Shown here piece by piece: positions 1 through 56,250 of a DNA stretch of 64,000 bases (positions are counted from its first letter, which is position 1; every line of letters begins with the position of its first letter). The DNA is from Hypomyces perniciosus. Its lineage: Eukaryota; Ascomycota; Sordariomycetes; Hypocreales; Hypocreaceae. Made by a program: the position numbers and the translations under genes. The stretch lies in contig SPDT01000007.1 of assembly GCA_008477525.1 (NCBI GenBank), positions 4,092,001 to 4,156,000 on the forward strand, written 5' to 3'. The notes beneath the pieces were generated by a model that saw only the letters and a program-made list of their open reading frames with translations, was not told where the DNA came from and searched no databases.

Positions 1-480
1 GAAGCCTGATTTGCAGCCCCCTGCTCAGAGCGCCACTGGTATTTTTCCATATTGTTTCACCAAGCCCACCTTTTTTGCTGCGCTGCAAATTGGCCTTTTC
101 CGGTGCGGGGTGGTGCTGCGCCCGCTGGGCTCCAATCATCACCACAAGTAGTTGAGTCCATCTGACAGCGGGAAAAATGCCTACAGCCAGCCATCATCTG
201 AGACGCGCTTAATGAGCTGAGCGTGAGACTGATGCATGAATCTGCAGATTTCCAAAGGGCTGGGAGGAGTACTCGTACGGAGTAGTACTTGTAGTAATAT
301 TAATAGTAGTACTCCGTATGGATCATCCGAGTATTGCACCTGATCCTGTGATAATCTCGCTGAGCGGACTCCTCTGAACGCTGAATATTAATTCGAGGCC
401 CCTTTTGTTGATTGGTACAGTGGTACGTACCCAGTAGCTCAGTCTCATCATAAGACACTTGTACTTTGCAGTTGCAGAGG
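1..480. other. gene-free AT-rich flank
   Basis: I see no credible coding sequence here. The stretch has two copies of the short TACGGAGTA/TACTCCGTA motif that recurs through the window (near 275-285 and 309-318), with AT-rich simple sequence between them. It ends at the target-site duplication of the transposon that follows. Confidence 0.6.
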
Positions 481-26317: not shown

Positions 26318-26697
26318 GAAATCGGTTTGGACAAGGCGTAACGGTTGCTTGTTTGAGCTACAGTGGGTAGTAGAGAGTAGTAATACATGATCCAAAATGA
26401 GGCAGGTCTTCTTCCCGCCCGCCTTCGAATGAGTGACCGCGGCAAAACTGTCCAGCAGCACTCACTGTGCACCGTTGACTTTTTTTCTTCGACAAATAGG
26501 ACAAAATGTGATAGCGAGCGTAGACGGGTGGCTGAAGCCTCCGGAATGACCTTTGCCGGGAAGTAATGGTTACAGCAAATGGAAGGAAGGGGTAGTGTCA
26601 TGGGATATTAATGAAATACTCCAATATAGAGAGAGCTTGAGATATAAAGACAAATTTAAAAAGAAATATGGATAAAAAAGCAAAAAGATAGAAATCA
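26318..26697. other. gene-free stretch between amidase and tRNA
   Basis: 3' region of the amidase and the downstream flank of the minus-strand tRNA. The run of A residues just past the tRNA 3' end (26640-26690) reads as T on the tRNA strand and can serve as the RNA polymerase III terminator. Confidence 0.5.
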
Positions 26698-26782
26698 GGA
26701 CCGGGCGATAATCGAAATCGCGACCTGGAGATGTTTGCTGCATAAGCTGCAATCTCTCACTCTACCACTGAGCTACCAGTCC
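26698..26782 (-). tRNA. tRNA with a 14-base intron, probably tRNA-Cys(GCA)
   Basis: An 85-base cloverleaf on the minus strand. The acceptor stem GGACTGG pairs with CCGGTCC. The D-arm is GCTC-AGTGGTA-GAGT with the G18-G19 pair. The T-arm is GCGAT-TTCGATT-ATCGC. Counting along the standard numbering places T33 and then GCA as anticodon, with AGAGA pairing to TCTCC (one A-C mismatch at the end of the stem). A 14-base intron follows position 37, where tRNA introns lie, and contains TGC, able to pair with the anticodon. G at position 37 is unusual. The tRNA call is firm; the amino acid depends on the intron placement. Confidence 0.87.
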
Positions 26783-43085: not shown

Positions 43086-44059
43086 GACGGGCAGCGTCTG
43101 AGAGGCTGGAGCAAGAGGAGGAGGAAGAGAGATACGAGTAGTAGTAGCAGTAGATGATTTGGGGGTGGAGCTCGACAGGAAAAGGGGAGAGCTCTCTTTT
43201 TGAGCATTGAGATGGAGCTTAACTGCGTCAGCTAACCGCTAACCAGCCCCGAGATAGGCGGAAAGAACCCCTGCCGACCAATCCAATGGGGATATCTGGA
43301 GTGGCGGCAGTTAGTGTGGCGCGATCTTGGAGCTATGGCCTATAATGTGATCTGATATCGATATCAATACTACTACTACTACTACATACTACCACAACCT
43401 CCGTACATAATACTGCATCCGCAGGAACATGTTGTAGTTTGTAATCTCTGTGTGTATGGAGACTGTTTAGATGGATATTTGCAGACCTGCGATTGCCAGT
43501 CCGCTTGCGTGGGTTTGTTGGTGCAATGCAAGGTTGAATGGGCTATCCACCCCGGCTGCTCATGAACAGCAAACTTGGTATGCCTTCTACAACATCCCGT
43601 GCAACTATTCAAGAACAGTCATGAACGCTTGTTTCCATTTTACTTAGCTATTGTTTATTACTCTCTTCTATGTATTGAATAGAAGTTTTCACTACCTAGT
43701 ACCCCAAAATACCTAGTTGGGCAGCCGCCCAAAAAAAAAAAAGTGCAGCGTCTGCCTCCGTTTGGCCTCATCGACCTGACAGCTGGCAGTCAGTCTGACA
43801 CTCACGACCTTTTCAGAAAAATAAACAAAGGCTAGTTCAGAAATTTCTCAGATTCGACTCAGGGCAACTGGTCGTCAGGCATAACTAAAAAAATCCCCAC
43901 CTCCCCCGAACTTCCCTCTTTTTCCCTCCATCTTCAGACCTCTTCACGTCTTCACGATTTTCATCACGAACGCACGAACAACGCCTCGATAACCTATCCC
44001 ATCATCATATTGACTCTATATCCCTCTTCTTCTTCTTCCTCTTCCTTTATTTCGTCAAG
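43086..44059. promoter_or_regulatory. divergent promoter region
   Basis: 974 bases between the small membrane-protein gene (-) and the large acidic protein gene (+). Contains a TAC-repeat run (43366-43392), an A-tract (43732-43742) and long pyrimidine runs just before the + strand ATG (43900-44055). Confidence 0.45.
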
Positions 44060-47000
44060 ATGGAGTATAGCACGATCTTCGAAATCGTTCCCTGCACGAA
44101 CGTGCCTCTCGAGTTCCTCCTCCTCCTGCCCGTATGGGCTCTCTTCTTCCTCGTGTGCTTCTGCGTTAACGCGGTCATGGCCATATGGCCTGCGTTATAC
44201 GTAATTTATTTCACCTACGCCGCCTCTGTCCCCAACTTCAGCCCTCTCGTCCTCGTTGTTTCCTGGTTGAGTCTTCTGGCTCACCTGAATCAATGGAGTT
44301 TTTCGACCGAGAACCGAAGACTGGATGTCCAGCTAGCCATCGTCTGCTTACGCACGTGGCTACTCCTGGCATCCCCTGTCATCGTCAGGTCAAGTTGGGT
44401 TGGCTTCAAACACATCTTCACGTTGATCGTCCGCCGAATCCATGCCAGCATGGATTTTGATCTTCCCTACCCGGACTACATGATCAAGTGTTACATGCCA
44501 ACTCCTCCTGGGTCGCAATGCGATATCGACATGGCTGCACTCGTCGCCGATGCCTCCGGGGCATCACGAGAGCGCCACTCTTCTACCGTCATGAGCAAAG
44601 CGGTGTACGAAGCCGTCTTCGGACGGGGACGACCACTCCGCAGGCCTGTTCCTCTGACGGCTGAAGAGAACCGTCGGTATGAGACATTCAAGACCTATGT
44701 CAAGGAGCGATGCCGACAGATCAAGGCCGCACAGCAGGTGCTTGAACCGGCCACTGAGCAACCTGGTTTGGGTCTGAGCTCGAGCTCCCCAATTCCCCCC
44801 GTTCCCGCGACTTCTGGTAGCCCGCAGCAGGCGTCCCGCGACAGCGATGTCAACGGAAACGATGCTGAATCGGTGATGACGACAGCTGAAGCTCCCGCCC
44901 AGTCGGTTGAGATGTTCGCGCGTCACGCTGATCCCGAGCCGGATAACGCCACGGACACAGTCATGGCTGAGGAACCCAAGGTCTCTCGCGAGTCCGAAGG
45001 TGAAAGCATGGCTGTCACGGTTGCCACAGAGCCAGTTACGACAGCAACCGAGGAACCGGCGGACCACGAAGAGTCCAATGGTGAAGGTTCGCTTTTCCCT
45101 GGTGCAGCACAGGAGGCAGTCTCCCAGGAACCTGAGTCCTCTTTTGAGGAGGAGGGTGACGGAGAGCTGCATATCCTCGATGCAGCCCAGTTTACAGCTG
45201 AGGAACCGGCGGACCACGAAGAGTCCAATGGTGAAGGCTTTGTACACGCCGAGGTACACGGAGCAGCTGAGGAACCAGCGGTCTCTTCCGAGACCAACGG
45301 TGAAGGCTTGCATTTCTCGAGCACATTGTCTGAGGTCGCTCAGGAACCCACGGACTCTCGCGAGTCCAAAGGTGAAGGCTGGAACCTCACCAACCCGTCC
45401 CTCTTTGCGCCATCGTTTGACGATGCTGAGGTTGACTTTGGTGGCAACATGGGCGAGATCTCGTATGAGAGGGAGCCCAATGTTGATGACATTGTTGCCG
45501 AGTACTACGTACCAAGGCTTCTTAGCGGTCCGGAGGGCATCTCAGACCTCCCATGTCCACCCTTGGAAGTCGAGGACATGCAATGGGAGCCTGCTGGTCA
45601 GGCCCTTGCCTCTGTCCACGACGATACCAGTGGACCCATGGAGTTGTTGCCCGTCCTGGAGGACAGTCGGCCTGCAGTCATGGCACAGTAGGATGTGACC
45701 ATTGCAGATGTCGACCCCTCTACATTGGCAGACCTCCCGAGTTTCGAGATGGACCCTGCCGATATGGACCCGGATATGCTCGACCAGATCCTCGAGAATC
45801 TGATCGCCGACACCGACGCACCGGCTACCAACGTGCACGACTCTGTTCCCGATGAGTTCGATGCATGGTTGACTTCGTTGAAGCCGTTGGAGGAGTTCCT
45901 CGCGTCGGTTTCGAGTCCGCCTGGCGAGTCGGCAATGGAGTGCGAGGGCCTGGTATTCCAGGACCCAGCATTTCCAGAGGTTGACCCGGGCATGGACATC
46001 GACATGCCAATGGAGCCGCAGCATCACCGCGGGCCGAGTGTCCTTATGGACTCCAACTCGGATACGGAGATGGACTTTTACCCCGATGAAGGGTCGGACT
46101 CCGGCATGAACGTCGGTCAGGATGAGACATGCCCTGACGTAGAGTCGCTAACTGCAGCTTTGGCTCAGTTGACTCTCACGACAGTGGACGATGTCGACAT
46201 GGAGGTCGTTGCAGAGGACGACGCGGAGTACGGGGATGATACCCTCATGACGGAGCCCGAAGGGCATGATACCTTAATTGAGGACTTCCCCGCCGCCGTC
46301 CCGCAATATTTTACCGGCGTTTCGCCCCCGCGATCGCCTTCTATCGCGAGCACCGAGTCATTGGACGATTTGGAGGCTGAGCTGCTTGGTGTATCGCCTA
46401 CGCGATCCCGAGCGGCTTCGACAGACTCGGATCTTCTCCATGACTTGGAGGCCGCCTTTGCAGGGTCACCTGTCCGGATGCCCTCACCGGACTTGAATGG
46501 ACCCCCTCTCTTTGCGTTTCCCGCCGACATGGTTGGCTTGCTCTCTTCGGCCCCTGGTGGAACGGTCACCAGCCTGCCCCTGAACCAGTTGTTTGACTTC
46601 GGTCATAGGTCAGTGGGTGAGAACGAAGTCTCTGAGGAGCAACCTGCCGAGGGAACCAACTCGGACCCGACAGAAGATTCGTCTTCTGGTCAACTACCCT
46701 CTCCGAGCCAAGAGGAAACCGGGGAAGAAGCCACGCTTGCTGAACCCCAAAACGAGGATGACGAGAAGGTCATCGACGGCCGCGTGTTCCTGGAAAGCAA
46801 CACGACCGAAACGACACCGGCGCAAGAGCCAGCAGCTCTCGGCACTGAGACGGATGCTGTCCCGACCGTTACGACGGACAGCCAACCTCCATCTGGAGAG
46901 GTAATTCCCGCCTCAGGGCCTGAGACGCAGGCACCGGCACCAGTGTCGTCCGACGATGTTCCGACGATTAGGATGGGAGGCCTGGTATTCCCCGGCGGCA

Positions 47001-47482
47001 ACGCCAAACAACCAGCGACCCCGGATGTGACACGGTCGAAGCCGATTGCGAGCGTGGCTCCAATCAAGATGGGTGGCTTGATTCTCCCTGGCGGTAACAC
47101 CGTCCAGCCAAGCACCCCTGCTCCCGTCACTCCGGTCAAGCCATGTGACAAGACCCCCGACCCTGAAGCTCTGAAGAGGCAAAAGGAGGAGAGCATCAGA
47201 CGGGACTTGCGCAATAGGCGAATGAGGAAGCCTGACTCGGTTTTCAACACCAGGAGGACCCCGACGGTCGCTCGCTCGGTAGCCGCGGAGAGAGAACAGA
47301 AGTTCCAATCTCCGCAGTCACTCGAAGCCATGCTCGCCGCTGAGAGTGCAGGCAAAGCCCGAGCCGACACGGAGGAACGTCCAACTGGCACGACGATCGT
47401 ATCGCTTGCCGTTGTGAAGGCGATTGATCAGGCCGCTGCTCAACGAGGGGAACTGCGTGAGGGTGACGCAGATTCCGACTAA
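44060..47482 (+). CDS. large acidic membrane-anchored protein, frame interrupted by one TAG
   Basis: One frame of 1,141 codons runs from ATG 44060 to the stop at 47482, except for TAG at 45689-45691. Upstream part (543 aa): two or more hydrophobic helices (EFLLLLPVWALFFLVCFCV, then AIWPALYVIYFTYAASV and PLVLVVSWLSLLAHL), a basic region, then an acidic region with EEPADHEESNGEG-like repeats. Downstream part continues in the same frame with the same Asp/Glu/Pro-rich style and has two GGLxxPGGN blocks (about residues 975-1020) before a basic C-terminal segment (RRDLRNRRMRKP). The TAG could be a recent nonsense change, a readthrough site, or lie in an in-frame 54-base intron (GTAGGA at 45688 to CCCGAG); the last has poor splice signals. 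I know no homologue. Confidence 0.68.
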
Positions 47483-47950
47483 GGGGACGGTTAACCCACA
47501 AAAACATAAAAAGACAAAAAAAAATTTCGTTGATTTTCACGGGAGTTTGGTTTTGTTTTTTGTGTTTGTTCTGCGTGCAGAACAGCTGTTTGAGTTTTGT
47601 TGTGCGGGCAAGAAGCAGTCCTACTTTCAGATTTTTGGATACCCTTGCCTTGATGTCGTCGAACATCCAACATAATACGAACGATATTTGCTGCGGAACG
47701 GAAGAGGAATCACCAGACATTGCATACGGCGACCGACGAGCTATTACCAAGAGAGCTATCCTTCCATTTGCTCATCGACTTGCTCATCACGTTGCTTCGC
47801 GATCATGTCAATCAATCACCATGACGCACACCTTGCAATATCACAACACAAGTGATTTTTTTTGGTTTTTTTTGGAAGAGGCAGGCCAACCAGTGAGCTT
47901 TCGCTTTGTGAGCTGAATATATCCGAAAAATCGCTCTACATCTCGCTGCG
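47483..47950. other. 3' flank of the acidic protein gene
   Basis: Starts with A- and T-rich runs (47500-47580) likely to form the 3' untranslated region, followed by CA-rich sequence leading into the repeat array. No gene seen. Confidence 0.5.
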
Positions 47951-50900
47951 AGGTCGACCTATCTCTGGCTGTGGCAGGCATGCATCAGACAAGCTATTGC
48001 TTTGGGGCTGAAGACATCATACACTTTCGCTCTGCGATGAGATGCCAAACGAACTTCATGGCACATTCGTTGCAATGCCACAACACATCACATGAAGAGA
48101 AGAGGATCATGCATGGCAGACGACACCAGACATTGTTGCTGCTAGTACAGAGAACATGGAGAGGCGACAAGATCAGACTTGAAGACAATCTTGCTGCCAA
48201 TTCATTCATCTGACCTGCGATGTGGACGTCAAACACCAAATGTGACAGATGCATCGCAATTTCATACTGAAGAGGAATCACTGCACATAGCGACACACAA
48301 CACTTGAGTCGTGGCTATGTGGGCGGAACAGACGGAGAGGCGATGAGAGACATAACCATCTTTGCTCTTGCTCTCAGGCGGAATCAATCACTGCCGGCCG
48401 CACGTCGAACTGCTCAACTAGGGTGTCACACACACATCGTGACACACAACTGAAGAGGAAATCTTCGGGCCTGGCGGAAATAATCATATGAGCCGTGCCC
48501 GGATGGACAGAAAATGGAATGGCAACGGGAGACATAGTCGATCATCTTGCTCCCTGGCAGAAACACAGCTGCCAAGCCACACATCAACCTGTTCTGCGAT
48601 GGCGCCAAACATACTGACTGGCACTACATTGCAAAACCATAACTGAAGAGGGAATCTCTGGAGTTGGCAAACGACAATTGGCCATTGCCACCTCCAGGTC
48701 CGCAGAAGAGATGCAGAGGCTACGTGACACACTTACATCTTTATTTGAGACCACTGAGCCACACATCGAACTGCCCTGCGGCGATGTCAACGCACATAAT
48801 CATGACATGACATCGCAGCAACAAAACACAAGGGAAGCTCCGGTGGCAGTGACGAACCACAACATTCGAGTCATTGCTATCCGGGTGGACATGGATGAAG
48901 AGACAACTAGAGATGCAACATCAATCCTTTCTCTGGTGCTAGTCTCGCATTCAATGTCCAGCAGTTCTGTCTGACAACCAACACAGCAGACACACCGCGA
49001 ACACACAACATAAGAGGGAACTTTCTGGGATGGCGGACAACAACAAATCGGTTGTCGCCATCCTGGTAGGCAGAGGGGGTGGTGAGGCAAGGAGAGGCTA
49101 ACAAAATCTTCTCTCTGGGCAGAAAACAAGACTGCCAGCCTCCCACCCCAACTGCTCAGCGATGTTGTCAACAAACCACATGACACACATCACCAACATC
49201 ACAATGCCACCCGCCGAATACTGAATTACATCGGTGGTGGCACGCGAGAGATGAGAACAACTTCCTCTCTTGCGGAAACATCGGGGAGACAACAAGAAGC
49301 TGACGAACTTCTTGCTCTCCGGGCGGAACACATCACTGCCCAACACACAACCAAACAATCCAACCTGCCCTGCGATGGTGTCAACACCAAACAAACAATC
49401 CGACACACAGCGCGATGCCACATGACGAAGGTGGCAGGGCAATTGCTGCCTCTCTCTCAGAATTGAAGAGATTGAGAGGCAGCGCGCGAGAAATCAACTT
49501 GCTCACCAGGCAGACCACATCACTGCCTAACACAAACAAATTCAAACTTCCTGCGGTGATATTGACGTCAAACACACAACACGCCATATCCATCGCAATG
49601 CCGGAAACAAACACGGTATCAACGCCGGCACACCAAACATCGACAGCGATATCCCCCTTCTCCTAACAGACAATGAGGGAGAAACGGGACATATCAAAAA
49701 CGGGGATGTCGTTGTCTTGGCAGAAAACACGACTGCCACTCACCAAACAAAACAAAAAAAACACTTTGCGATGGTGTCAACTTCAATCCTACACGACACA
49801 TCCATCGCCACCGTCGCTTGCCAAAGTCCACGCATACATACAAAAGTATCACCATGGCAAGCGACGGTTGCGGATAGCTTTGCCCTCTCTACCTACATCA
49901 GGGACTTTGCTATCATGGCAGAAACATCACTGCCACTCACTCACACAAAAAAAACACTTTGTGATGGTGTCAAATTCAATCCTACATGACACATCCATCG
50001 CCTCCGTCGCTTGCCAGCACACACACACACACACACACACATAAAGGTATCACCATGGCAAGCGACGGTTGAGGATAGCGCAGTCTTCTCTCTACATAAG
50101 GGGCTTGCTATCCTGGCAGATCTCACAGCCACTCACTCAATCAAAAACACTCCGCGATAGTGTCAACTCTAATCCTATACGACACATCTATCGCAACCAT
50201 CGCAACCATCGCTTGCCAAAAACACACTCAAAGGTATCACCATGGCAAGCGATGGGTGCGGATAGCGCAGTCCTCTCTCTACATAAGGGACCCTGCTATC
50301 CTGGTGGAAACCAAAACTGCCAATCACATTTCCAAAACCCCTGCGATGATTTCGGTGTCGACAAATCTCACACGACACACATCGCAACCGTCACTGTGCC
50401 ACTACAAAACGATGAGGGTATCGCTTGTGGCCAGACAGACAAACGAGGACAGCTCCCCCTTCCTCCATCTCTCTTCAATCAGAATATGGAGAGATGGAGC
50501 ACAAAAATGGGGATGTTGTCCTGGTGGTCATAACATCACACATGGCCACCGCAAAACACACCAAAACATCTTGCGAAGGCGTCAAACATGTACACGCCAT
50601 CGCAATCACTCACAATATGAGAGCACCGCCGGTGGTCCCCGATCCAACATAATGAAGAGGACATCACCGGTGGTGACAGAGCATTTGAGCCTAGCTCCAC
50701 CCCCCCTCCCTCGTCTAACAGAGAAAATCGGAGAGACGAGAGGAAAAGGGGTGTTGCTATGTCCGGGCAGAAAACACGCCTGCCTGACACATCGAACAGT
50801 TCTGTGCCGTATAGTGTCGGAATCTATACTACATCTACGATTCGACACCGTACATCACGAGAGGCAACGCCCGAAAACAGCGAGCAACTGAAGGGAATTG

Positions 50901-51660
50901 CCTTCTCTGTCTCCCTCAATGGAAGAAATGGGGGAGTCAACAACACCAGAAAAGATCACCAGATTCTCTTGTCTCTTAATGCAGAGAACAGAGACTGCCT
51001 CTTGCGACCTGTGGTATTGAACACGGTACACTTACAATTCGACACCATGGGTCGCGAGAGGCAGTCCCCCAAGACCGCAAACATTGGACTGGGGCTGCTC
51101 TCTCTATCCACCCTCATTGGAAGGAATGAGGAAGGACATTGAGAGACAAGATTCTGTGATCTTTCAAGGCAGAAATCAATGGCTGCTTTTGCGATGGCGA
51201 CAAACAAATATGACGCAACATCGCAATGCCACACATCAAGAGACAATCTCCCAAATCATAAACATCAAACGGGGATTGCTTTCTGTCTCCTCCCATTGGA
51301 AGGAATGGGGGAAGACATTGAGTGACAAGATTCTGTGACCTGTCAAGGTAGAAAACAATGGCTGCCTTTGCGATGGCGACAAACAAACACGACGCAACAT
51401 CGCAATGTCACACATAGAGGCAATCCCCAAAATCACAAACAACAAACGGGGATTGCCCTCTCTATCTCCTCTCATTGGAAGGAATGAGGGGAGAAAACAG
51501 GAGACACAAATCTCTGGTCTCTTTGGGCAGAAACAATGCCTGCCAACAACAAAATCTGCGATCATGTCCATCACACAATCACACATACATCGCAAACCAC
51601 CAAAAAGAGGCGCCCCCCCTGACATCACTCACACACACAGAATGGGGGTGCCTCTTCGTC
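47951..51660 (+). repeat. degenerate tandem array of hairpin-bearing units, about 170-230 bp each
   Basis: About 18 head-to-tail units. A landmark resembling TGCGATGGTGTCAAC recurs near 48034, 48217, 48595, 48779, 49159, 49371, 49553, 49767, 49959, 50154, 50342, 50572, 51191, 51370 and 51557, with degenerate forms between. Most units hold a long hairpin, for example stems 48658-48670/48685-48697, 48840-48853/48870-48884, 49028-49041/49051-49063, 49207-49217/49231-49240, 49445-49454/49474-49483, 49642-49656/49702-49716, 49810-49823/49855-49868, 50463-50473/50489-50499, 51417-51428/51448-51460 and 51606-51617/51644-51655. A short GGCAG/CTGCC hairpin follows in most. Loops are A/C-rich on the + strand. 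Unit lengths are not multiples of three, and no frame persists. I cannot match it to a known element class. Confidence 0.85.
49765..50315 (+). repeat. three closely similar consecutive units of the hairpin array
   Basis: Units starting near 49765, 49959 and 50154 share most of their sequence. Each contains a 13-14 bp stem (TCGCTTGCCA paired with TGGCAAGCGA plus flanks), then GGATAGC paired with GCTATCC or GATAGC with GCTATC, then the short TGGCAG/CTGCCA hairpin or a remnant. The middle unit also has a (CA)n run of about 13 repeats in its loop. They look like the youngest duplicates in the array. Confidence 0.88.
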
Positions 51661-52114
51661 TCTCTCCCCCAAAAACACACAGAAAGGGATAGATAATGAG
51701 ACTCTCACGATGATGGGATGTTGCCTGCGGGCAAAAGCAAGCTGCTGATCAAAAAGCCTTGCAACACCAACGCCCCGCGCCTTGCAACATGAACACAGGT
51801 CCATTTCGAACAAACCACAAGCAAGAGCGGCACATCCCATCGTGAACATGCACAAACAGTGCAAACAAAAAAGTCACGAAACAAACACACAACCACATCC
51901 AACACAGGGGAGCCGGTGGAAGCTTCACAGGCACCACCACCACCACCACCACGACTATCAAACCACCAAGCCAAGAGCGAACCGAACAACACAAAACAAA
52001 TTCAAGGCGACACTAGAAAGCAGCGAGGGAGCTGCCAACGGACAACGCAGTCATAATGCACAAAGCCACAAATCAAAGAGGCAATCATTGGAGAAAGCTT
52101 GATTCCTAGCTACA
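51661..52114. other. right flank of the hairpin array
   Basis: CA-rich sequence in the same style as the array, but without a clear hairpin unit; a CAC run lies near 51930-51952. Contains the 3' region of the minus-strand atg14-like gene. Confidence 0.45.
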
Positions 52115-53938
52115 TCATCTGCTTTTCACCTTCATCCATCCATTTGAACTCGTCCGTGGCGATCCCCTCGCATCCAGAGTCCCGACCTTGTCAACATGGG
52201 TCTTGGACTCAACCGCCCCGTTGCCGACGCTGTCCTCCTTCCAGGCATCGTCATCCAGCATCTCCCAATCGGGAGCGGGCGCGTCGCCAAGCAACTTCTT
52301 CTTGAGCTTATCAGCAAGCTTCAATGGACTTGGAAGCTTGAAGCTCTTGATCAATTCGGTTCCCTCGGCACCAGCTAAGAAATAATAGCTCGTGCCATGA
52401 GAATATCGGCCAATCCAGGTCTGACTCGCATTGGCCCCCTGGCCCCCCGTGTTGGCATCGGATCCCGGCGCGTTGACAGAAAAATTGTTCGCGCCCTGGA
52501 ACTGATGATTTATTAAAAGACTATACAAATTCCGACCCATGTTGCAGATGTCCTCGAATGAGCTCTTGTCTCCGATGGACACGCCCTGGGAACAACACAA
52601 CCAGGCGATATCATACGCAAGAAGTGTGACGCCTTCAAGAAACAACGAATAAGTCGCTGGATCCTCTTTTGAGAGCTGCGGCAATGGTTTGTCCACAAAA
52701 AGTGGACGGGGCCTCGGGACGTGGGTGTTGGCACCAGGGGATTCCATAAGGGGAATCGAGGCCAGGGGAGTCCCGGGGAAGGAAACATCACCATGGCGAT
52801 AGGAACTTTGGAGGTTGAACATGGTTGGGCGCGGGTAGTCGCGATGTGGAAGGGTGATCTCGGCAGGGAGTCGAATGGCTAGATAGTGGGAAACAAGCAC
52901 AAGGATATGTGCAATGTGAGAAAGGGATGTTGAGATGGCTTCTGGAGCCAAAGCTGGGTAGAGTTAGCATTTGGACATGGCAAAGCTGGCAAAAAAAAAA
53001 AGGCTAGCAACGAGATGGCATAAAATGCCGGGAGAAGAAGCTGGAAAGCCGGCAAAGAGAAGGCATGAAATGCCAGGACAAAGGGGGCATAAAATGCCTT
53101 TGGGAAATGGCAAAAAAGCCAGGGGAAAGGGAGAGGCATAAAATGCCAAGAGGGAAGATGTCATGAGTGCCAGAGGGAGAGAAGGCATAAAATGCTATGA
53201 TGAGAAAAGGCATAAAATGCCAGAGGACGAGAAGGCATAAAATGCCAGGAGATGAGAATGGCAAAAAAGCCAGAGGAAAGGGATTAGGGTGGCAAGGCCG
53301 AGAGATGGTCATTGATGGGATATATATACAAATGGCATAAATGACATCAATGACTTACAGTCCATGCTCGTGAGGTCCACAACCGGAATCCTGCCTAGTT
53401 GATATTCATGTCGTGATGTGCTCCCTTTCTTATTGATCCTCTTGAGACCATAGAGTCTGGCGGCTTCCGTACAGAGAAATGCGCGTGTCGCGGCCATGTC
53501 CTCGGCACTCTGCGACCATCGGTACCGGAGCATGTTGATGGACTTTTCGACATCCTTCTGCTGCTTGGATCTCCGCTCCGCGAGTCCGGCAGAGACGGAG
53601 GCGAGATCGGACTTGCGCCGGGCAAGGGCGGCCTTCCGGGCCTGAATCTCCTCTCTGGCGGCCTTGATTTCCTCTCGTAGCTTGTCCGCAGCTGCAAGAA
53701 TCTGGTCCGTCTTCTGCTCTGCCGTGTACTGCTGCGCGAGTGCCTGATCCCAGGCGTCCTTGCCGGGGTTGGCTGTGTCTGATAGGAGGTCATTGATCTG
53801 GTTCTGGAGAGCTTCATTTTCGAGGATAAGCTGTAGGTGCTTCATGCGGCCTTCGTATATCTTATTCCTGGCGTCCACAGCACAGAGGAAGGGCTGCCTC
53901 TGGGCATCGTGGTACCGATGACAGATGTCACATTCCAT
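52115..53938 (-). CDS. atg14: Atg14/UVRAG family autophagy protein (PI3-kinase complex subunit)
   Basis: Exons in transcription order: 53938-53359 and 52953-52115 (472 aa). The 405-base intron (52954-53358; GTAAGT to CCCAG) joins LTSMD to SLAPEAISTSLSHIAHIL. The N-terminus MECDICHRYHDAQRQPFLCAVDARN carries the Cys pairs of the Atg14 domain. A long coiled coil follows (about residues 40-135, Glu/Lys/Arg/Ala-rich). Then a conserved block ILVLVSHYLAIRLPAEITLPHRDYPRPTMF and further conserved helices (FLEGVTLLAYDIAWLCCSQG). Family role: the subunit that directs the Vps34-Vps15-Atg6 lipid kinase to autophagosome formation (Atg14) or endosomes (Vps38/UVRAG); these two cannot be separated safely here. 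The intron holds a palindromic minisatellite. atg6 lies 9 kb away. Confidence 0.85.
53017..53272. repeat. palindromic minisatellite inside the atg14-like intron
   Basis: Eleven short inverted repeats at 15-49 base spacing. The main form is GGCATAAAATGCC (53017, 53086, 53135, 53209, 53234). Variants are GGCATGAAATGCC (53062), GGCATAAAATGCT (53184), GTCATGAGTGCC (53160), GGCAAAGAGAAGGC-like pieces and TGGCAAAAAAGCCA (about 53108 and 53259). Between them are purine-rich spacers. Most variants keep the GGC/GCC arms complementary. Confidence 0.92.
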
Positions 53939-54814
53939 GTCTAAGGAGTGGTGGTTACCGCCGCCGTGATGAGATGAGATGAGATGAGATGAGATGCGAT
54001 ATCGTGGCTCAATGGTGACTCGATACCATATGAGAGAAAGACGGAGGCGGTACCCGTCAGTATTGGACAGGACTTCCTGGTATCCCTTTCGGGGGCTTTG
54101 TCAAGGTGCCTGAAGGGGATCTATATAGGCACAAAGATATGAAAAATCGGTCGGAGCGATGACGGCGACTGGACAGATGACTTCGAACAAAGACGAGGGA
54201 GTATTAGGTTGAGATCACGCGGCGAGATAACGACATTCAAAGTAGACACAAGCCGCCACTGTTAGTGCCACAAGGTTAGGTACTAGGCAGCTATGTTAGG
54301 GAGTTGGTGGCGGGCAAACCCCACTGTGAGTTGATCACTGGGCCCCCAAGGAACAGCGGGCCCACTGAGTGAGATCTCTCCTGGCTCGTCTTGGTTGACT
54401 CTAGGGCCTGTTCTGTGTCGCCAGGCTCAAATTAACCTCGCTGCATTCATCATCCAACGTGTCTGGACGTGACTTGAGGAATCGCGCCCGCCACTGGAGA
54501 TGTCGCTGTAACTGAGACTCTGATTGAACCTCCTGTGTCCAATTATTCGTTATTCTATGCGAAAATCACCGTCACTTATGACACGATCGCATTAACGCGC
54601 CCAATACTCTTTGTCCGGGGACCGTCTTTGTTTGGCGACGCGACAGGCATTGCTACACGGTGCTCGTACTCCGTGCCTGCCTCCTGTCTCTACGCCCTGA
54701 TTCATAACAGCCTAGGCCCTGACCAAAAAAAAGCAATCAGGGCAAACCTCTGAGGCGTATCAAAGAGGCTGCAGAAAAGAGCACCTCTGAACTCTGCCTA
54801 GCAAGCTCTCAAAC
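53939..54814. promoter_or_regulatory. divergent promoter region with a GAGAT microsatellite
   Basis: 876 bases between the atg14-like gene (-) and the next gene (+). About five GAGAT repeats lie at 53968-53996, in the presumed 5' leader of the atg14-like gene. One TACTCCGT element is at 54666-54674. Confidence 0.5.
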
Positions 54815-55666: not shown

Positions 55667-56250
55667 ATGCTAGTACCTCCTCACCCGCGTTCCATGATGT
55701 CGGCATCTCGAGGTTCAAACGCTCACTTCCCCTTCGCCCTACCACAAATATCTCGCGTAAGTTCCAACTTCTTTTTCTTTAAATATGGTGCCATGGCTAA
55801 ATCTTTCTCTAGGATGACTTGGCTGCCTTTCATGAGAGCCACTTCGCTGAGGGAGCCATTACGGATTTTGGTCAAACATTCATAAATCCAACTGCCGCCC
55901 CTGAATCCCACGAGAACCCAAATTTTGATGAAGGGGACGAAGACGAAGACGATCTTGGTTACTATGAAGATGGCGTCAAACGCACCCTCACTGATGTGCA
56001 AATCGAGATCTTTCGACATTCGGAATTGAGGGAGCTTCGCCGACAAGAAGAACAAGCATTGAATGCGAAAACAAATACATCCACCAATAGCACGGTGGTC
56101 AATTCTCAACAGCAAGAGACTGGTCGTCCTCCAGGCTTCCGGAGCAAGAAGAAGAAGAAGAAGCCTACGAAACAGGAACCCAAGCCAGATTTGCGGAAAC
56201 GAACCTGGGATGTGGTCGAGGCTGGATTAGACTCTCTTGACTATGATTGA
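55667..56250 (+). CDS. DUF3807-like conserved fungal protein
   Basis: Exons are 55667-55756 and 55813-56250 (175 aa). The start is uncertain: ATG at 55667, 55694 or 55697 are all in frame, and the conserved part begins at NAHFPFALPQISRDDL. That opening and the block DDLAAFHESHF resemble fungal DUF3807 proteins (recalled). An acidic run (EGDEDEDDLGYYEDG) is followed by LTDVQIEIFRHSELRELRR, a poly-Lys stretch (RSKKKKKKP) and a conserved-looking end TWDVVEAGLDSLDYD. The basic run suggests a nuclear location. Function unknown. The gene lies 250 bases downstream of the preceding gene on the same strand. Confidence 0.72.

What the first reader, a model, noticed from the sequence alone, without database searches (positions are those of the whole stretch)
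47951..51660. Undescribed tandem array of hairpin-forming units
Seen directly: about 18 head-to-tail, highly diverged units in 3.7 kb, nearly every one with a long inverted repeat of 11-15 bp and an A/C-rich loop of 8-46 bases. Stem sequences differ completely between many units (for example CTCCATCTCTC at 50463, GCTGCCTCTC at 49445, GAGGCAATCCCC at 51417) yet each pairs with its own partner. Random decay of a duplicated palindrome would destroy pairing, so structure seems maintained. No reading frame persists. Possible roles are a long structured non-coding RNA, a small-RNA precursor, or a DNA structure such as a cruciform. No known class fits.
Basis: seen in the sequence. Interest (0 to 1): 0.92.

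Follow-up and report, generated by a model that had tools for sequence, protein, structure and literature searches.

The report
Tandem four-hairpin RNA array in fungus
In a mould related to Trichoderma, a stretch of DNA between two genes holds about twenty copies of a module that would fold into up to four hairpins when copied into RNA; the letters have changed greatly from copy to copy while the folded shape has been kept, which suggests a long, shape-based non-coding RNA of unknown function.

Summary
The array is real, larger and more regular than described. About 20 head-to-tail units of 177-235 nt run from about 47.77 to 51.79 kb. Each has up to four hairpins: H1 and H2 largely keep their sequence, H3 and H4 only their shape. 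All 14 + strand 200-nt tiles from 48801 to 51600 fold far better than shuffles (z -3.1 to -8.9). H1/H2 pairing survives substitution better than a tree-based null (89% vs 73% paired; 0 of 2000). H3 and H4 arms pair with their own partners (-20, -21 kcal/mol), not with other units' (-9). Single mismatches in stems are 15 G.T to 2 A.C in a strand-neutral fold, favouring + strand RNA over a DNA cruciform. No second copy was found in the genome; no Rfam family reaches its cut-off. Best reading: a structured non-coding RNA (or very long 3' UTR), built like mammalian NORAD, acting as a multivalent binding platform. Transcription, partner and relatives are untested. Against: the 5' quarter folds weakly; only 1 of 18 pairs passes a per-pair covariation test; a cruder unit-by-unit test gave a modest excess and no strand asymmetry.

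The parts
47767..51790 (+). whole array of about 20 tandem structured units; + strand taken as the RNA strand
   Evidence: strand
47799..48033 (+). unit 0, degenerate; H2 GCGATCATGTCA / TGACGCACACCTTGCA
   Evidence: 47767-47837, E 0.015
48034..48215 (+). unit 1; H2 48034-48073, H3 48114-48144
48216..48417 (+). unit 2; H2 48216-48258, H3 48284-48321, H4 48344-48376, H1 48377-48395
48418..48594 (+). unit 3; H2 48423-48445, H3 48467-48500, H4 48527-48554, H1 48555-48574
48595..48776 (+). unit 4; H2 48595-48633, H3 48657-48698, H4 48718-48760, H1 not recognised
48777..48964 (+). unit 5; H2 48777-48820, H3 48839-48885, H4 48886-48960, H1 not recognised
48965..49156 (+). unit 6; H2 degenerate, H3 49025-49066, H4 49069-49156, H1 49118-49136
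   Evidence: no model hit for its H2 at E < 1
49157..49370 (+). unit 7; H2 49161-49191, H3 49205-49242, extra hairpin 49243-49274, H4 49283-49320, H1 49321-49341
49371..49551 (+). unit 8; H2 49372-49413, short H3 49417-49435, H4 49444-49484, H1 49508-49528
49552..49766 (+). unit 9; H2 49552-49597, short H3 49599-49630, two-tier H4 49642-49716, H1 49718-49738
49767..49959 (+). unit 10; H2 49767-49804 (its outer 3' arm to 49809 overlaps H3), H3 49806-49872, H4 49873-49914, H1 49916-49935
   Evidence: recent duplicate of unit 11
49960..50152 (+). unit 11; H2 49961-50001, H3 50004-50068, H4 50072-50114, H1 about 50114-50131 (not in the fold)
50153..50341 (+). unit 12; H2 50154-50194, H3 50202-50259, H4 50260-50301, H1 50302-50322
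50342..50570 (+). unit 13; H2 50342-50386, H3 50394-50434, two-tier H4 50446-50522 with inner stem 50463-50499, altered H1 50523-50550 (GGTGGTCAT/ATGGCCACC)
50571..50805 (+). unit 14; H2 50571-50605, H3 50624-50675, two-tier H4 50692-50759, H1 50760-50789
50806..51004 (+). unit 15; H2 50804-50858, H3 50859-50907, H4 50908-50939, further hairpin 50967-50992
51005..51189 (+). unit 16; long H2 50993-51066 (28 pairs), H3 51067-51094, H4 51096-51148, H1 about 51168-51187 (not in the fold)
   Evidence: no model hit
51190..51368 (+). unit 17; H2 51189-51226, H3 51239-51284, H4 51285-51316 (loop GGAAGG), H1 about 51345-51368
51369..51556 (+). unit 18; H2 51369-51404, H3 51416-51461, H4 51465-51494 (loop GGAAGG), hairpin 51499-51523, H1 51526-51544
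51557..51739 (+). unit 19; H2 51557-51594, H3 51605-51656, degenerate end
52115..54100 (-). downstream neighbour atg14 (PF10186 in two open frames), convergent with the array

Best explanation
The locus encodes one long structured RNA on the + strand, either an independent non-coding RNA gene or the extreme 3' end of the upstream gene's transcript. It is built from about 20 tandem modules of up to four hairpins. SHOWN by computation: the modules, their folding, retention of pairing through substitution, and a mismatch pattern that selection on a + strand RNA explains most simply. INFERRED: each module is a docking site. H1 (GGCAG-AAA..-CUGCC) and H2 (UGCGAUG..GUGUC / GACAC..CAUCGCA) largely keep their letters and are the likely recognition elements. 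H3 and H4 keep only their shape and act as rigid spacers. A/C-rich, G-poor unpaired stretches stop the modules from mispairing. Repetition gives a multivalent platform or decoy for a double-strand or hairpin-binding protein, as NORAD does for Pumilio.
For: Fold z-scores against the window background. Tree-based null on 18 H1-H2 rows: 89.0% of cells paired vs 73.1 +- 1.9; 24 double-change cells vs 6.8 +- 2.6; 0 of 2000 for each. Own versus cross partners: H3 -20.1 vs -9.0, own best in 14 of 19; H4 -21.1 vs -9.1, own best in 11 of 17; H2 -16.6 vs -11.9, own best in 4 of 18; H1 -8.5 vs -7.8, own best in 3 of 15. Strand: 1x1 mismatches in a fold that forbids G.U pairs are G.T 15, A.C 2; the reverse complement, folded alike, gives the mirror image, A.C 14, G.T 4; 20 shuffles 56:184, 15 other window tiles 75:89 (Fisher p 0.0007 vs tiles). 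On H1/H2 cells A.C is 11 vs 20.8 expected (2 of 2000 as low), G.U 27 vs 24.9. Unpaired bases are 47% A and 9% G, paired bases 32% G. Kept words lie in H1/H2 stems: GCGATG in 11 of 20 units (50 shuffles, at most 3), GGCAGAAA in 7 of 20 (at most 1) (words picked as the commonest).
Against: No transcript evidence could be obtained. No related species could be compared, so the only evolution seen is between units. A sequence-only alignment of 17 rows gave RNAalifold no consensus pair (0 pairs), so the H1-H2 structure was set by hand from unit 10. The alignment behind searches was fitted to that structure and leans towards it. Per pair, only 1 of 18 reaches E < 0.05 against the tree null. Unit-by-unit comparison over the 7 of 19 unit pairs at 60% identity or more gave 31 two-sided kept pairs vs 17.4 expected, but also 21 two-sided broken vs 16.4, and one-sided changes to G.U (56 vs 69.6) and to A.C (53 vs 66.8) equally below expectation, so no strand asymmetry there (the folds include many chance pairs). 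Including 2x2 loops weakens the strand test to 21:10, p 0.015. The reverse complement without G.U folds as well as the + strand (-1151.8 vs -1132.0). Units 0-4 fold weakly. The role as a binding platform rests on analogy alone.
Confidence: 0.53

Rival explanations
1. It is the very long, structured 3' UTR of the acidic protein gene upstream (same strand, stop codon 47480-47482) and controls that mRNA's stability, localisation or translation rather than acting on its own.
Against: About 4.3 kb would be an exceptional 3' UTR for a filamentous fungus (own knowledge, not looked up). A T-rich stretch at 47540-47600 could be a promoter (not tested).
Confidence: 0.25
2. DNA-level origin: a hairpin-prone satellite whose stems are kept perfect by template switching (quasi-palindrome correction), or which acts as a cruciform or fork barrier between convergent genes; no RNA function.
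For: Would produce double changes without selection; convergent intergenic position; most array tiles fold better than shuffles on both strands; unit-by-unit one-sided changes show no strand asymmetry, 56 G.U to 53 A.C.
Against: Strand-symmetric processes do not predict 15 G.T to 2 A.C mismatches within stems, A.C scarcity in H1/H2 or G-poor, A-rich unpaired bases on one strand. A transcription-coupled C-to-T bias could mimic the first, but T is scarcer than C among unpaired bases (16% vs 27.5%).
Confidence: 0.13
3. Small-RNA precursor: a multi-hairpin transcript diced into milRNAs or siRNAs.
For: The genome has two places that match the Dicer-dimer domain; 7 of 107 predicted helices have 17 pairs or more, the longest 28 at 50993-51066.
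Against: Only 2 of 107 helices reach 20 pairs and most H1 stems have 5-6; the whole-array DNA search at E <= 10 found no second locus; Rfam miRNA matches are far below gathering score.
Confidence: 0.08

Closest known systems
NORAD lncRNA of mammals (PMC4947167 and PMC7617650, passages seen)
   Same: Central ~3.5 kb of 12 repeating units of ~300 nt from tandem duplication, diverged until no stretch is identical in all; repeats 1-10 hold some combination of elements that include a short and a longer stem-loop; units lose elements individually; structure proposed to position protein sites.
   Different: Up to four hairpins per unit here; about 20 units of ~190 nt; no Pumilio element: 0 matches in the array to TGTRTATA, the consensus given in that paper, nor to the recalled form TGTA[ACT]ATA; function not shown; homology across kingdoms not expected and not tested.
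roX1/roX2 of Drosophila (PMC4719309, passages seen)
   Same: Repeated stem-loops carrying a short conserved word; sequence turnover so fast that stem-loops and synteny are often the only landmarks.
   Different: roX stem-loops share the roXbox; here H3/H4 arms are private to each unit; no dosage compensation is known in fungi (own knowledge).
Fungal lncRNAs such as HAX1 of Trichoderma reesei (PMC5865335, PMC6948969: listing and start of abstract; review PMC12566771: passages)
   Same: Probably the same family of fungi; a protein-decoy mechanism is proposed for HAX1.
   Different: In the review's text 'hairpin', 'stem-loop' and 'repeats' do not occur and 'tandem' only in a reference title. No sequence comparison made.
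Candidate structured RNAs of fungi (PMC5640933, PMC8216456: passages seen)
   Same: Non-coding structures in intergenic or untranslated regions found by comparative analysis.
   Different: The passages describe single motifs; 'tandem', 'repeat' and 'Trichoderma' do not occur in either main text.

Membership tests
NORAD-type tandem-unit lncRNA (works like, not homologous) | Many diverged tandem units each with stem-loops | tested here: met
NORAD-type tandem-unit lncRNA (works like, not homologous) | Pumilio response elements in the units | tested here: not met
   0 matches to TGTRTATA in 47767-51790 and 0 to TGTA[ACT]ATA in 47790-51800; so not filed as a NORAD homologue
NORAD-type tandem-unit lncRNA (works like, not homologous) | Stable abundant transcript | not testable with these tools
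   no RNA data
Known RNA family (Rfam 15) | Covariance-model match at gathering score | tested here: not met
   only a tRNA at 26697-26782 in the window; at E <= 5, 7 matches in 47480-52110, all far below cut-off, best mir-8364 28 bits vs 67
milRNA / hpRNA precursor | Small-RNA reads from one strand of a hairpin (criterion in PMC9757828, passages) | not testable with these tools
   no small-RNA data
milRNA / hpRNA precursor | Host has Dicer | tested here: met
   PF03368 matches at two places in the genome
milRNA / hpRNA precursor | Duplex of about 20 pairs or more in the hairpins (size recalled) | tested here: not met
   2 of 107 predicted helices reach 20 pairs
Dispersed transposable element or MITE | Further copies elsewhere in the genome | tested here: not met
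Protein-coding tandem repeat | Frame kept from unit to unit | tested here: not met
   unit lengths mod 3 mixed; the longest frame, 263 codons, has no homologue
H/ACA snoRNA cluster | Two long hairpins with guide pockets, H and ACA boxes | not tested
   only Rfam was run; by eye the hairpins are short and lack large internal pockets

The most novel reading that the evidence does not exclude
A non-coding RNA that is inherited as a shape. In a fungus whose kin mutate repeated DNA (RIP), a tandem RNA can persist only if its units differ in sequence; so two hairpins per unit keep their letters because a protein reads them, while the other two are free to change completely so long as both arms change together. 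Sequence turnover itself would then be the adaptation that lets a repeated RNA survive genome defence, and the array would be a fungal counterpart of NORAD that arose independently.
Probability: 0.13. Interest if true: 0.85.

Novelty: new variant of a known kind. Interest (0 to 1): 0.62.

Why it matters
Conserved structure in long non-coding RNAs is disputed, largely because covariation is hard to show (own knowledge). Here about 20 internal copies in one locus give such evidence within a single genome, with a contrast between letter-kept and shape-kept hairpins. If transcribed, it would be a repeat-unit structured RNA in filamentous fungi, where deletion, compensatory mutants and pull-downs are practical. 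It would also allow a test of whether multivalent, NORAD-like RNAs arose independently outside animals.

Tried and rejected
Protein-coding repeats: frames do not persist and the longest open frame has no homologue. Transposon or dispersed repeat: no second copy found (one search was too strict to tell). Known RNA families: none at cut-off. RNAalifold on a sequence-only MAFFT alignment of 17 rows found no pairs; I took this as misalignment of short arms and set the H1-H2 structure by hand on 8 easy rows; a 14-row alignment was not used. Unit-by-unit substitution test (19 unit pairs, both directions; totals over the 7 pairs at 60% identity or more): noisy because unconstrained folds add chance pairs; modest excess of two-sided kept changes and no G.U/A.C asymmetry, reported as such. 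RIP-mutated repeat: the indices point away from RIP (TpA/ApT 0.35, (CpA+TpG)/(ApC+GpT) 1.47; rest of window 0.66 and 1.27; their reading is recalled). Raw folding energy alone is not special: a tile from 43021 in the acidic gene is as low (-1138.8 vs -1132.0); only the comparison with shuffles is. Rows dropped: two chance matches outside the array (43255, 56325) were in the 20 rows and were removed. Units 6 and 16 gave no model hit and are absent from those rows. In one search, units with no recognisable hairpin were left out of each class, so n is 15 for H1, 18 for H2, 19 for H3 and 17 for H4 out of 20 units; hairpin borders there were set by me from the fold, which favours own partners. Unit borders were set by eye. 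Literature: nine searches; those were aimed at such an array and their listings showed none, those sought parallels; the library lacks most subscription papers.

Full report
SETTING. The window is G000:C4:4092001-4156000, inside a 6.94-Mb contig of a 44.0-Mb, 23-contig genome. For the DUF3807 protein at 55813-56250 the best of 859 hits is Cladobotryum mycophilum (64% over the whole query), followed by Trichoderma species at 53-60% among the 120 listed, so the host is probably a member of the Hypocreaceae (inference). The array fills the space between an acidic protein gene on the + strand (open frame to 47482) and atg14 on the - strand (PF10186), whose ends face each other.

ANATOMY. Laid out by eye from the H2 arm, 20 units of 177-235 nt follow each other. 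A fold with pairs limited to 120 nt shows up to four hairpins per unit. H2 is UGCGAUG + GUGUC / GACAC + CAUCGCA with an A/C-rich loop and a bulge. H3 is a longer stem of unit-specific sequence. H4 is another unit-specific stem, in units 9, 13 and 14 two-tiered, in units 16-18 closed by a GGAAGG loop. H1 is GGCAG / CUGCC, mostly with an 8-9 nt A/C-rich loop. Units 10-12 and 17-18 are recent duplicates (74-85% identical; 193- and 179-nt periods); the 14 other neighbouring pairs compared are 44-67% identical (the pairs 0/1 and 1/2 were not compared). Units 0-2 and 6 are degenerate in part.

IS IT MORE THAN CHANCE? Tiles of 200 nt from 48801 to 51600: 14 of 14 have + strand z of -3.05 or lower (mean -5.7), while the - strand ranges from +0.34 to -6.2 (mean -3.4) (30 shuffles each; means worked out from its table). 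Background: 296 tiles per strand, mean -0.05 and -0.10, sd 1.33 and 1.26 (20 shuffles each). The five tiles before 48801 are ordinary (z 1.1 to -2.4). Ungapped stems: 39 vs 17.6 in shuffles. Without G.U pairs the array folds to -1132 kcal/mol (reverse complement -1152), shuffles -785 on average, best -818 of 20.

IS THE SHAPE KEPT WHILE THE LETTERS CHANGE? (i) H1-H2: a covariance model from 8 units, with the structure set by hand from unit 10, finds 18 places at E <= 0.015 in 47.3-52.3 kb, head to tail on the + strand, 10 of them not used for training; in three 10-kb stretches elsewhere on the contig the only match has E 2.8. On the 18 rows 274 of 308 cells are standard pairs and 11 of 18 pairs show a change on both sides. 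With substitutions re-dealt along a FastTree tree, paired columns kept apart from unpaired, the null gives 73.1 +- 1.9% and 6.8 +- 2.6 double-change cells against 89.0% and 24 observed; 0 of 2000 reach either. The tool's own count on 20 rows, two of them chance matches, gives 28 against 7.8, and sliding the partner by 1-3 columns drops pairing to 21-49%. The alignment was fitted to the structure, which inflates all of these. Pair by pair, 1 of 18 passes E < 0.05 and 7 of 18 have p < 0.05; of 2908 non-pairs none passes E < 0.05. (ii) H3 and H4 cannot be aligned. Instead I paired each unit's 5' half with every unit's 3' half. H3: own -20.1, cross -9.0, shuffled -10.9, own partner best in 14 of 19. 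H4: own -21.1, cross -9.1, shuffled -13.0, best in 11 of 17. H2: -16.6, -11.9, -10.1, best in 4 of 18. H1: -8.5, -7.8, -6.3, best in 3 of 15. So H3/H4 stems are mostly private to each unit, H1/H2 largely shared. Folded alone, 15 of 19 H3, 15 of 17 H4, 16 of 18 H2 and 9 of 15 H1 have z below -2. Hairpin borders came from the fold, which favours own partners. (iii) A unit-by-unit substitution test was weaker. Over the 7 of 19 unit pairs at 60% identity or more: two-sided kept 31-32 vs 18.3 expected (31 vs 17.4 as Watson-Crick), two-sided broken 21 vs 16.4, one-sided G.U 56 vs 69.6, one-sided A.C 53 vs 66.8, one-sided otherwise broken 64 vs 71.0. It shows no strand asymmetry.

WHICH MOLECULE? RNA tolerates G.U; on the opposite strand the same site reads A.C. 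In a fold that forbids G.U and so does not favour either strand by wobble, single mismatches within stems are 15 G.T and 2 A.C; the reverse complement gives 4 and 14; 20 shuffles 56 and 184, 15 other window tiles 75 and 89 (Fisher p 0.0007 against tiles). Adding 2x2 loops gives 21 to 14-2=10 excluding none, that is 21 G.T to 10 A.C, p 0.015. A separate ungapped stem scan gave 13 to 5. In H1/H2, A.C cells are 11 against 20.8 expected, G.U 27 against 24.9. Unpaired bases are 47% A, 27.5% C, 16% T, 9% G. Most of this points to selection on a + strand RNA; one search does not. Cruciforms or template-switch repair would treat the strands alike.

HOW IT MAY WORK. The kept words are GCGATG (11 of 20 units), CATCGCAA (8), GGCAGAAA (7) and TGAAGAG (7), each above all 50 shuffles; the first three lie in H1/H2, the last is 59% unpaired and in 4 of its 7 sites lies in the linker after H2 (the linker placement read off). 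I infer that H1/H2 are read by a partner and H3/H4 space them. Repetition argues for avidity: a scaffold or decoy. NORAD is the nearest parallel: 12 units of ~300 nt over ~3.5 kb, diverged until nothing is identical in all, with short and longer stem-loops in some combination, the structure proposed to place protein sites. The array has no Pumilio element, so the likeness is of build and perhaps of mode, not of descent.

RIP. In Trichoderma reesei crosses induce C-to-T mutations in tandem and unlinked duplications (PMC5496416, passages). This genome has cytosine methylase matches at two places (which, if either, is RID was not tested). The array shows no RIP bias. Divergence between units may be what lets it escape. 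This is speculation.

LIMITS. No RNA data, no second species, structure set by hand, function by analogy. That it is undescribed rests on six aimed searches of one open library, seen mostly as listings, and on Rfam 15.

Noticed in passing
53017-53271 (between the two atg14 open frames, probably an intron): A second, unrelated array of nine tiny hairpins (GGCATAAAATGCC type and GGCAAAAAAGCC), spaced about 25 or 50 nt; fold z -5.6 on + and -3.8 on - in the tile from 53001; DNA search of the genome finds only itself.
   Followed up: partly
43889-47482, + strand: Acidic protein gene with a hydrophobic N-terminal part and repeated EEPADHEESNGEG-like stretches, no Pfam match; two successive open frames.
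   Followed up: no
51800-52200: The + strand stays A/C-rich beyond the last unit (skews) although folding there is close to shuffles (z -2.0 and -1.9).
   Followed up: no
47568-47583: Short inverted repeat GTTCTGC-GT-GCAGAAC upstream of the array, next to a T-rich stretch that could be a promoter.
   Followed up: no
201-400 (+) and 46801-47000 (-): Isolated 200-nt tiles with z of -5.0 and -4.7 (the second was -3.2 and lies inside the acidic gene).
   Followed up: no
26697-26782, - strand: tRNA-Ala (TGC), 86-88 nt by the two tools, perhaps with an intron (guess).
   Followed up: no
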